This document shows, in pieces, positions 29,168-31,054 of a DNA stretch of 36,820 bases. The notes below the pieces were generated by a model that had not been told where the DNA came from, made no database searches, and saw only the letters and a list, made by a program, of their open reading frames with translations. Within the stretch, counting starts at the first letter, position 1. Every line of letters starts with the position of its first letter. The DNA is from Chloroflexota bacterium (GTDB taxonomy: Bacteria > Chloroflexota > Anaerolineae > Anaerolineales > Anaerolineaceae), in assembly GCA_021789855.1 (NCBI GenBank), contig JAJYIW010000007.1, forward strand, positions 1-36,820, in the 5' to 3' direction. Both the position numbers and the translations under genes were made by a program.

Positions 29168-29295
29168 GACAGGATAATCGCGTTTTCCTTTTTTGATAGT
29201 TCAGTCTACAACCAGGATCTCGGCTGACAATGGCTGGCTGGCCTCACGGGGTGGAGTAGGCAAAATGAGATCCGCTTATTGTCATAAACCGCGAT

Positions 29296-29332
29296 CCTGT
29301 CATTTCCGGCAAAACTTGCCGGTTTTGACGGG
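29296..29332 (+). ncRNA. Candidate structured RNA segment in IS110 left end (possible bridge RNA part)
   Basis: CCTGTCA/TGACGGG outer stem, 3x3 U internal loop, CCGGCAA-AAC-TTGCCGG inner hairpin; further hairpin TAGAAC-ATGG-GTTCTA at 29333-29348. Function inferred. Confidence 0.4.
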
Positions 29333-29541
29333 TAGAACATGGGTTCTATCTATGCTATCCTTTCCATTGGCGATGAGCAAAGGCCCCACAACTCCTTACC
29401 CCAGCGAGGGTCTCAATAAGTTTGGGCTAACACGACCCACCCGCGCCACGCATAGACGTTTCAGTCTCTAAAAAAGAATGGCCCTTTGAGGTCCCGGGTG
29501 ATTCATCGCCGATATGTGGCAGGAAAGGAGCATATTTTCTC

Positions 29542-30792
29542 TTGACACGACGCATCCATGCCAATGGAGAGACGACCGTATCCGCACGTTACCACATCAC
29601 CGGGGGCTGTGACACCGACAAAAATGTGATTGTGGCCGCCATCTTTTGGGCCGAAACCGGCCAACTGATCTCCCGCGAGTTTCAACAACATAAAGCCGAC
29701 GCTCTTTGTGCAGCCGAATGGTTCCAGGAAAACCAGGTCGAACTGGTGATCATCGAGAGCACCGCCAACTACCACATGCTCTACTATGACGTCTTGCGCA
29801 ATGCCGGTGTCTCCATTCTGGTGATCAACCCGATTGTGGTCAAGTCGCTCCTGCGCGTGGAGGGTAAGTCAGACAAAGGAGATGCTATGACCCTGGCCCG
29901 CCTGGCCTCCAGTTTTGCACTCAAAACCTCGAATATGCCCGACACTCTACAGCGAGAGATTCGCCTGCTGTACAAACGGGTGGACACTTGGAAAGTGTTG
30001 TGCACCCAGACCACCAACCGCGCCAACGGCGTGCTGACCGGCTGCGGTTTCACCGTCTTTCGCCTGGCGTCGATCAACAGCCCGGCCGGGCTGAAAATCC
30101 TGCAAGCCATTTTGGACCGGCGCACACCCGCCGAGATGGCAGCGTTACATCGCAACAAAGCCAAACGCGCCCAGATTGAGCAATATGCCTCGGTGGAATT
30201 GCCTGAATATGTCTATCCCTATCTGACCGAGGTGCTGGAGGAGGTCCGTGTCTTCAATCAGAAGATCAGTCACGGTGAAGCCGACCTGCTGCAGATGATC
30301 GAGACTTTCCACCTGGAGGAACAGGTGGCACTGATGCAAAGTGTGCCAGGAGTGACCCGCATGTTGTGCTTGCGGGTGATTTCTGAAATGGGGGCGAACT
30401 ACCACCAGCGCTATGCCAGCGCCGAAGCCTTCGCCAAGGCCATCGGGGTGGTCCCGGCCAATGAGGTCTCCGGCGGGAAACTGCTCAAACGCAAGGCTTC
30501 CCATGGCAACATGCGAGTGAAATTCCACCTGCTTTCCGCGGCTAAGGCCTTTGCCATTCACGGTTCTGGACCGTTACGGCATTGGTTTGACACCTACCGG
30601 GCACGGTCAACTTACCTGAAAGCCACGTCGGCTTTGGCGCGCAGGATAGCCGAAGGGCTGTGGTGGGTAATGGCCCGGCAGGAGCCCTATAAGACCTGGG
30701 AAAGCCAGAAGGCGACCGTCCAGGTTGGCGTGAAATTGGTTGACCCAAAGACCGGTGAGATCGTGGGGGATTCCATTTCTGGGATAGAATGA
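29542..30792 (+). CDS. IS110 family transposase
   Basis: 416 aa; GGCDTDKNVIVAAIFW, LVIIESTANYHMLYY, VEGKSDKGDAMTLARLAS and C-terminal MQSVPGVTRMLCLRVISEMG...AKAIGVVPANEVSGGK. TTG start with SD AGGAAAGGAG. Confidence 0.92.
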   Translation: MTRRIHANGETTVSARYHITGGCDTDKNVIVAAIFWAETGQLISREFQQHKADALCAAEWFQENQVELVIIESTANYHMLYYDVLRNAGVSILVINPIVVKSLLRVEGKSDKGDAMTLARLASSFALKTSNMPDTLQREIRLLYKRVDTWKVLCTQTTNRANGVLTGCGFTVFRLASINSPAGLKILQAILDRRTPAEMAALHRNKAKRAQIEQYASVELPEYVYPYLTEVLEEVRVFNQKISHGEADLLQMIETFHLEEQVALMQSVPGVTRMLCLRVISEMGANYHQRYASAEAFAKAIGVVPANEVSGGKLLKRKASHGNMRVKFHLLSAAKAFAIHGSGPLRHWFDTYRARSTYLKATSALARRIAEGLWWVMARQEPYKTWESQKATVQVGVKLVDPKTGEIVGDSISGIE

Positions 30793-31054
30793 GACCTATA
30801 CGGTTATTAAGGTGCTAGGCCGTCTGGCCGGGCCCTGATGGTCGCGAATATCATTTTGCTTGGCCCACCCCGTGAGAACAGCTTATCTTGTGCAAATACC
30901 TGCCTTGGTCGTCAATGGTTATGCGTTCTTATGGTGACATCGTTCACTCGGTAACATTTAATTTGAAAGAACGCTGTGCGAAGTAAAAATGATAAATAAA
31001 TTTCCATATCCGCAGTAAAATATTGAAGTAAGATATTAAGAAGGAAATGTTTCC

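What the first reader, a model, noticed from the sequence alone, without database searches (positions are those of the whole stretch)
29243..29541. IS110-like element: structured ~300-nt left end is a bridge-RNA candidate
About 299 nt separate the left inverted repeat from the transposase start, against ~84 nt on the right. The left segment holds an ordered set of hairpins: CCTGTCA/TGACGGG with a 3x3 U internal loop closing CCGGCAA-AAC-TTGCCGG (29296-29332), then TAGAAC-ATGG-GTTCTA (29333-29348). Published work on IS110 recombinases places a bridge RNA in the longer non-coding end; the layout here fits. Target- and donor-binding loops were not resolved by eye.
Basis: partly seen in the sequence, partly recalled or inferred. 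Interest (0 to 1): 0.65.

Follow-up and report, generated by a model that had tools for sequence, protein, structure and literature searches.

The report
Divergent IS110 element, likely bridge RNA
A single-copy jumping gene of the RNA-guided IS110 family carries, ahead of its recombinase gene, a stretch that most likely makes the short RNA choosing where it inserts, and small gene-less repeats elsewhere in the same genome carry the same ends and may be moved by it.

Summary
The hairpins are real and stable (z -4.6, 0/200 shuffles). The gene at 29542-30792 is an intact but very divergent IS110-family recombinase. Small repeats in the same genome share TCCTTTTTTGRTAG (window 29186-29199) and a 38-nt right end, placing CT cores at 29188-89 and 30882-83: 352 nt non-coding left, 89 nt right. 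This CT pair ranks 1 of 72 by complementarity to the left-end RNA.

In the left end, donor-matching segments (p about 0.004-0.0075) and target-matching segments (p 0.006-0.055) lie in the IS621 order. The two strongest hairpins contain none of them. One clade relative (33% identity) shares a 39-nt block there, at a similar distance from the start codon. Its T-run at the end and A-run in the block are both 4, against 6 and 6 here.

Verdict: a bridge RNA in the left end is likely. Individual guides are tentative: two donor assignments compete, only one relative was found, and there is no expression evidence. New member of a known kind; possible gene-less satellites are the more novel part.

The parts
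29542..30792 (+). IS110-family DEDD recombinase gene, 416 aa, TTG start with AGGAAAGGAG (29521-29530) just upstream; D24, E72, D111, D114 and S310 present
   Evidence: Pfam DEDD_Tnp_IS110 and Transposase_20; NCBIfam transpos_IS110 154.9 bits, cut-off 140; catalytic columns conserved; AlphaFold model pLDDT 84, best PDB match IS621; start consistent with L233
29188..29199 (+). inferred left end: core CT (29188-29189) plus right-donor sequence, CTTTTTTGATAG in all
   Evidence: shared with MITE-like repeats of the same genome; relative L233 has CTTTTGATA 246 nt before its start codon; CT pair ranks 1 of 72
30844..30883 (+). inferred right end: MITE-shared segment, left-donor sequence AGAACAG and core CT (30882-30883)
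   Evidence: 89-92% identical to repeats on C237, C132, C28 and C136; copies diverge after CTTA(T)
29237..29275 (+). left arm of the 39-nt imperfect inverted repeat, subterminal (about 48 nt inside the inferred end)
30844..30882 (-). right arm of the inverted repeat
29296..29332 (+). stem-loop with 3x3 U internal loop; candidate 5' stem-loop of the RNA
   Evidence: z -4.56 together with the next hairpin
29333..29348 (+). second hairpin TAGAAC-ATGG-GTTCTA; a similar GAACATATGTTC is in L233
   Evidence: L233 sequence
29382..29428 (+). candidate target-binding loop: proximal stem GGCCC/GGGCU, distal hairpin ACCC-CAGCGA-GGGU, two single-stranded sides of 11 and 12 nt when the guides are held open
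   Evidence: no more stable than shuffles
29388..29396 (+). candidate left target guide ACAACTCCT
   Evidence: best pair in the left end for the insertion sites of the IS and MITEs, p 0.006-0.055; the IS's own site TTTTC-CT matches only TCCT
29413..29420 (+). candidate right target guide TCAATAAG, complementary to CT-TATT
29463..29501 (+). block conserved with relative L233, 40 nt before the start codon here and 45 nt in L233
   Evidence: p <0.001 to 0.025 depending on alignment scoring
29475..29482 (+). candidate left donor guide AGAAUGGC, pairs 8 of 8 (2 wobble) with AGAACAG-C
29469..29476 (+). candidate right donor guide A: UAAAAAAG, complementary to CTTTTTT; A-run length matches the T-run of the end here (6/6) and in L233 (4/4)
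29521..29527 (+). candidate right donor guide B: AGGAAAG, in the IS621 order and spacing but overlapping the ribosome-binding site

Best explanation
[quoted passage not shown] Its 352-nt upstream end most likely yields a bridge RNA whose target loop (29382-29428) pairs with sites resembling TC-CT-TAT and whose donor segment (about 29463-29527) pairs with the joined ends AGAACAG-CT-TTTTTGATAG. The recombinase would use this RNA to join circle and target, as IS621 does. Small repeats of about 130 bp in the same genome that keep only the ends are probably derivatives moved in trans. Shown: intact family protein, shared ends, stable hairpins, a block conserved in one relative. Inferred: transcription, loop assignments, mechanism, mobilisation.
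For: Family and fold: (top PDB hits are IS621 and ISCro4 with bridge RNA). Long left, short right end, as in four multi-copy relatives (left ends about 240-290 nt). Ends fixed independently by MITE-like repeats. The same scan recovers the known IS621 guides and gives donor p 0.004 (shuffles) / 0.0075 (decoy ends) here. The target-guide pair is the best in the left end for seven left and seven right insertion flanks, p 0.01 (whole left end) and 0.006 (upstream part), 0.055 with young copies only; opposite strand and three control stretches show nothing. The CT pair ranks 1 of 72. Relative L233 shares a 39-nt block at the same place, the end motif, and matched run lengths. A mini-IS with 29 and 16 bp ends is mobilised in trans for ISEc21 (PMC11187229).
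Against: With its own insertion site alone the target match is not significant (p 0.30-0.385). Two donor-guide assignments are incompatible: the A-run guide at 29469-29476 overlaps the left donor guide by 2 nt and stands in reversed order, the alternative overlaps the ribosome-binding site. The minimum-energy fold prefers a long-range stem (about 29363-29379 with 29504-29527) over a local donor loop. No sigma-70-like promoter stands out at the joined ends. The left inverted-repeat arm lies about 48 nt inside the end, unlike the layouts described in the papers read. The scoring scheme was written after a first look at the sequence. Only one relative was found; its right end could not be defined.
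Confidence: 0.7

Rival explanations
1. The IS inserted into a MITE-like repeat, so the shared 14 nt on the left and 38 nt on the right are target remnants, and the true IS ends lie further in. The left end would still hold a bridge RNA, but the guides named here would be chance.
For: IS1111 inserts this way into QMITE2 in Coxiella, leaving 10-20 bp of the MITE on one side (PMC5896051); ISPa11 targets REP sequences; the shared palindromic repeat is common in related genomes.
Against: The central palindrome present in the MITE copies is missing here. One inverted-repeat arm would be inside the IS and the other outside. Relative L233, where the MITE ends were not seen, has the same end motif CTTTTGATA. 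The CT pair ranks 1 of 72.
Confidence: 0.2
2. The left end is mainly an untranslated leader: strong hairpins limit read-through and a long-range stem hides the ribosome-binding site. There is no guide RNA here, or it is decayed and the element is dead.
For: The most stable fold pairs 29504-29533 around AGGAAAGGAG with 29351-29379; the strongest hairpins contain no guide; no second copy in the genome; no junction promoter.
Against: Open reading frame and catalytic residues intact; conserved block and matching segments; the IS110-family elements studied experimentally use such an RNA (PMC11208160, PMC11187229). A leader role and a bridge-RNA role are not exclusive.
Confidence: 0.1

Closest known systems
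IS621 (IS110 family; bridge RNA solved by cryo-EM, PMC11208160, PMC11208158)
   Same: DEDD plus serine recombinase fold; long upstream end; CT core; order 5' stem-loop, target loop, donor loop, start codon; donor segments end shortly before the start codon (12 nt in IS621)
   Different: about 18% identity over the structural alignment; recombinase 416 versus 326 aa; left end 352 versus about 190 nt with an extra hairpin; 39-nt inverted repeat; shorter apparent target match
ISEc21 and other IS110-type elements (seekRNA, PMC11187229)
   Same: upstream non-coding region; bottom-strand match precedes top-strand match in the target loop; small derivatives with both ends can be moved in trans
   Different: no subterminal inverted repeats there; left-end sequences were not compared
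IS1111 group (IS4321, ISEc11, ISPa11)
   Same: subterminal inverted repeats; reported association with MITEs or palindromic repeats
   Different: non-coding region downstream in IS1111; repeats 11-13 bp lying 7 and 3 bp from the ends, here about 48-54 and 0-5 nt
QMITE2 of Coxiella burnetii (PMC5896051)
   Same: MITE linked to an element of this superfamily
   Different: there the MITE is the insertion target; here it shares the ends of the element

Membership tests
IS110 family | DEDD RuvC-like domain plus Transposase_20 domain with catalytic Asp/Glu and Ser | tested here: met
IS110 family | no target duplication; same core dinucleotide at both ends | tested here: inconclusive
   flanks of the IS and MITE copies show no duplication and CT fits both ends, but the ends are inferred from MITEs and the IS has one copy
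IS110 group (not IS1111) | longer non-coding region upstream of the recombinase gene | tested here: met
IS110 group (not IS1111) | subterminal inverted repeats absent or only short | tested here: not met
   39-nt, 79% inverted repeat with a 12-nt perfect core
IS1111 group | subterminal repeats of 11-13 bp with 7- and 3-bp outer extensions | tested here: not met
   outer extensions about 48-54 and 0-5 nt with the inferred ends
IS1111 group | non-coding region downstream of the gene | tested here: not met
   the downstream region is the short one (89 nt)
IS1111 group | recombinase groups with IS1111 recombinases | tested here: inconclusive
   the window sits on a branch of 3.86, joined to IS4321 by a fork at which long branches meet
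bridge RNA | one loop pairs with both strands of the target and another with both strands of the joined ends | tested here: inconclusive
   significant donor match, modest target match, donor loop not unique
bridge RNA | guides covary with target and donor across homologues | tested here: inconclusive
   one relative only; run lengths 6/6 and 4/4
bridge RNA | promoter formed at the joined ends | tested here: inconclusive
   best junction-spanning match scores 7 against a shuffle mean of 7.9 for the best site; the host's promoter consensus is unknown
bridge RNA | RNA expressed, bound by the recombinase and required for recombination | not testable with these tools
   needs RNA and activity data

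The most novel reading that the evidence does not exclude
A deep, undescribed lineage of IS110 recombinases (this element and L233) combines an upstream bridge RNA with a long inverted repeat, and supports natural satellites: MITEs that lack both gene and guide RNA and depend on the RNA and recombinase of one helper copy in the same genome.
Probability: 0.45. Interest if true: 0.62.

Novelty: new member of a known kind. Interest (0 to 1): 0.42.

Why it matters
Bridge-RNA recombinases are programmable genome-editing tools, and the characterised examples come from a small part of the family. A deep lineage with a different RNA layout widens the choice of scaffolds. If the small repeats are moved in trans, they show which end sequences are enough (about 14 nt left, 38 nt right) and give natural insertion sites with which to read the target code; the literature searches made here found no described MITE of a bridge-RNA element.

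Tried and rejected
Rfam at gathering thresholds: no match in the left end. Relatives: own genome, 40 relatives, then phylum, order and class samples, genome contigs, viral contigs (L039 and L237 were false positives), plasmids and phages. Only L233 belongs to the clade. Tree placement against IS621 and IS4321 is unreliable because long branches meet. Left-end alignment with Ktedonobacter, Accumulibacter, Enterococcus and S. suis elements shows no similarity. Intrinsic terminator in the left end: none by scan. The copy on contig C136 could not be classified (IS or MITE) because the contig ends inside it.

Full report
WHAT IS THERE. The inverted repeat also exists and is longer than described: 39 nt, 79% complementary (29237-29275 / 30844-30882). 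The open reading frame 29542-30792 is a full-length IS110-family recombinase: DEDD_Tnp_IS110 and Transposase_20 in Pfam, NCBIfam 'IS110 family RNA-guided transposase' above its cut-off, conserved D24, E72, D111, D114 and S310. Its predicted structure (pLDDT 84) matches IS621 and ISCro4 in complex with bridge RNA better than anything else in the PDB. It is very divergent: most relatives found are 22-31% identical, and its branch in a tree is as long as those of IS621 and IS4321. There is one copy in the genome, which is a draft of 333 contigs, 94% complete, 5.6% contamination.

WHERE THE ELEMENT ENDS. A search of the genome with the element found its right 38 nt on four other contigs. On three of them (C28, C132, C237) it is one end of a repeat of about 130 bp whose centre is a palindromic repeat common in related genomes and whose other end is TCCTTTTTTGGTAGGAA. 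Copies share sequence between TC-CT-TTTTTGRT on the left and ACAG-CT-TA(T) on the right and diverge outside. The common dinucleotide is CT, the core used by IS621 (PMC11208158). The element then runs from about 29190 to 30883, with 352 nt of non-coding DNA before the gene and 89 nt after it. Among all 72 pairs of CT in the two end regions, this pair has the highest summed complementarity to the left-end RNA, and the highest donor score.

THE GUIDES. IS621 served as positive control: the scan recovers its known left and right target guides and left donor guide, with the right donor guide at the expected place. In the window the donor match scores 14.0 (IS621 13.5), p 0.004 by shuffles and 0.0075 by decoy ends, from AGAAUGGC (29475-29482) against AGAACAG-C and AGGAAAG (29521-29527) against CT-TTTTT. 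An alternative right donor guide, UAAAAAAG (29469-29476), is a better match by itself. The element's own insertion site alone gives no significant target match (p 0.30-0.385). Using the flanks of all copies, the best pair in the whole left end is ACAACTCCT (29388-29396) with TCAATAAG (29413-29420): p 0.01 (whole left end), 0.006 (upstream part), 0.055 if the two divergent copies are left out; opposite strand and three control stretches show nothing. With the guides held open this stretch folds as stem, internal loop, hairpin, the shape of a target-binding loop, but it is not unusually stable. These p values come from one scoring scheme written after a first look at the sequence and should be read as suggestive.

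THE RELATIVE. A class-wide sample gave one clade member, L233 (33% identity over the full length, E 2e-61). The best local alignment of the two left ends is a 39-nt block, window 29463-29501, 40 nt before the start codon here and 45 nt there (p <0.001, 0.009 or 0.025 with three scorings). None of four more distant elements shows such similarity. L233 also has CTTTTGATA 246 nt before its start codon; unrelated DNA has such a motif 0.022 times per 500 nt. The T-run of that end is 4, and the only matching A-run upstream of its gene, in the conserved block, is 4; in the window both are 6. This is one covarying event, in favour of the A-run as right donor guide.

HOW IT MOST LIKELY WORKS. Established for the family: the recombinase binds an RNA from the long non-coding end, whose loops pair with both strands of the target and, in IS621, of the joined ends (PMC11208160, PMC11208158; PMC11187229). 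Inferred here: the same, with the RNA between about 29290 and 29530, upstream of the gene. The 5' hairpins would correspond to the 5' stem-loop of IS621. Because the same stretch covers the ribosome-binding site in the most stable fold, RNA folding may also limit translation; this is speculation. The small repeats keep 14 nt of the left end and 38 nt of the right end; ISEc21 derivatives with 29 and 16 bp move in trans, so satellite mobilisation is plausible but not shown.

RIVALS. The IS could instead sit inside a MITE, as IS1111 does in QMITE2 of Coxiella. Against this stand the missing palindrome, the inverted-repeat arms that would lie on different sides of the boundary, the end motif in L233 and the boundary ranking. 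A pure leader function cannot be excluded without RNA data.

STATUS. IS110-family membership is met. Assignment to the IS110 or the IS1111 group is not settled: the upstream region fits IS110, the long inverted repeat does not; the repeat's position and the short downstream end do not fit IS1111. I file it as a new, divergent member of the IS110 family with a probable bridge RNA.

Noticed in passing
G000:C28:6942-7075, C132:8754-8884, C237:689-806 (L004, L078, L079); partial or divergent copies on C142, C302, C136, C254: MITE-like repeats of about 130 bp: ends shared with the IS, centre a palindrome TGTCATTGCGAGG...GCAATGACA that is common in related genomes.
   Followed up: partly
L074 (G000:C28:698-917): Two copies of the palindromic repeat, each with a tail resembling the IS right end, stand in direct tandem.
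   Followed up: no
window 29267-29279 and 30875-30887: GAGATCCGCTTAT inside the left end resembles the right end plus flank GAGAACAGCTTAT (11 of 13); the left inverted-repeat arm looks like a decayed inverted copy of the MITE right end.
   Followed up: partly
L010/L015/L017/L018 and L091/L101: Ktedonobacter and Accumulibacter IS110 elements are followed by a second, direct copy of their 3' part (about 227 and 371 nt).
   Followed up: no
L233, just after the recombinase stop codon: The relative's recombinase gene is followed almost directly by a small helix-turn-helix-like reading frame, leaving little room for a right end.
   Followed up: no
model m15d81d199e7f (window 29542-30789): After IS621 and ISCro4 the next PDB matches are TIGR-TasR and box C/D RNP proteins.
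   Followed up: no
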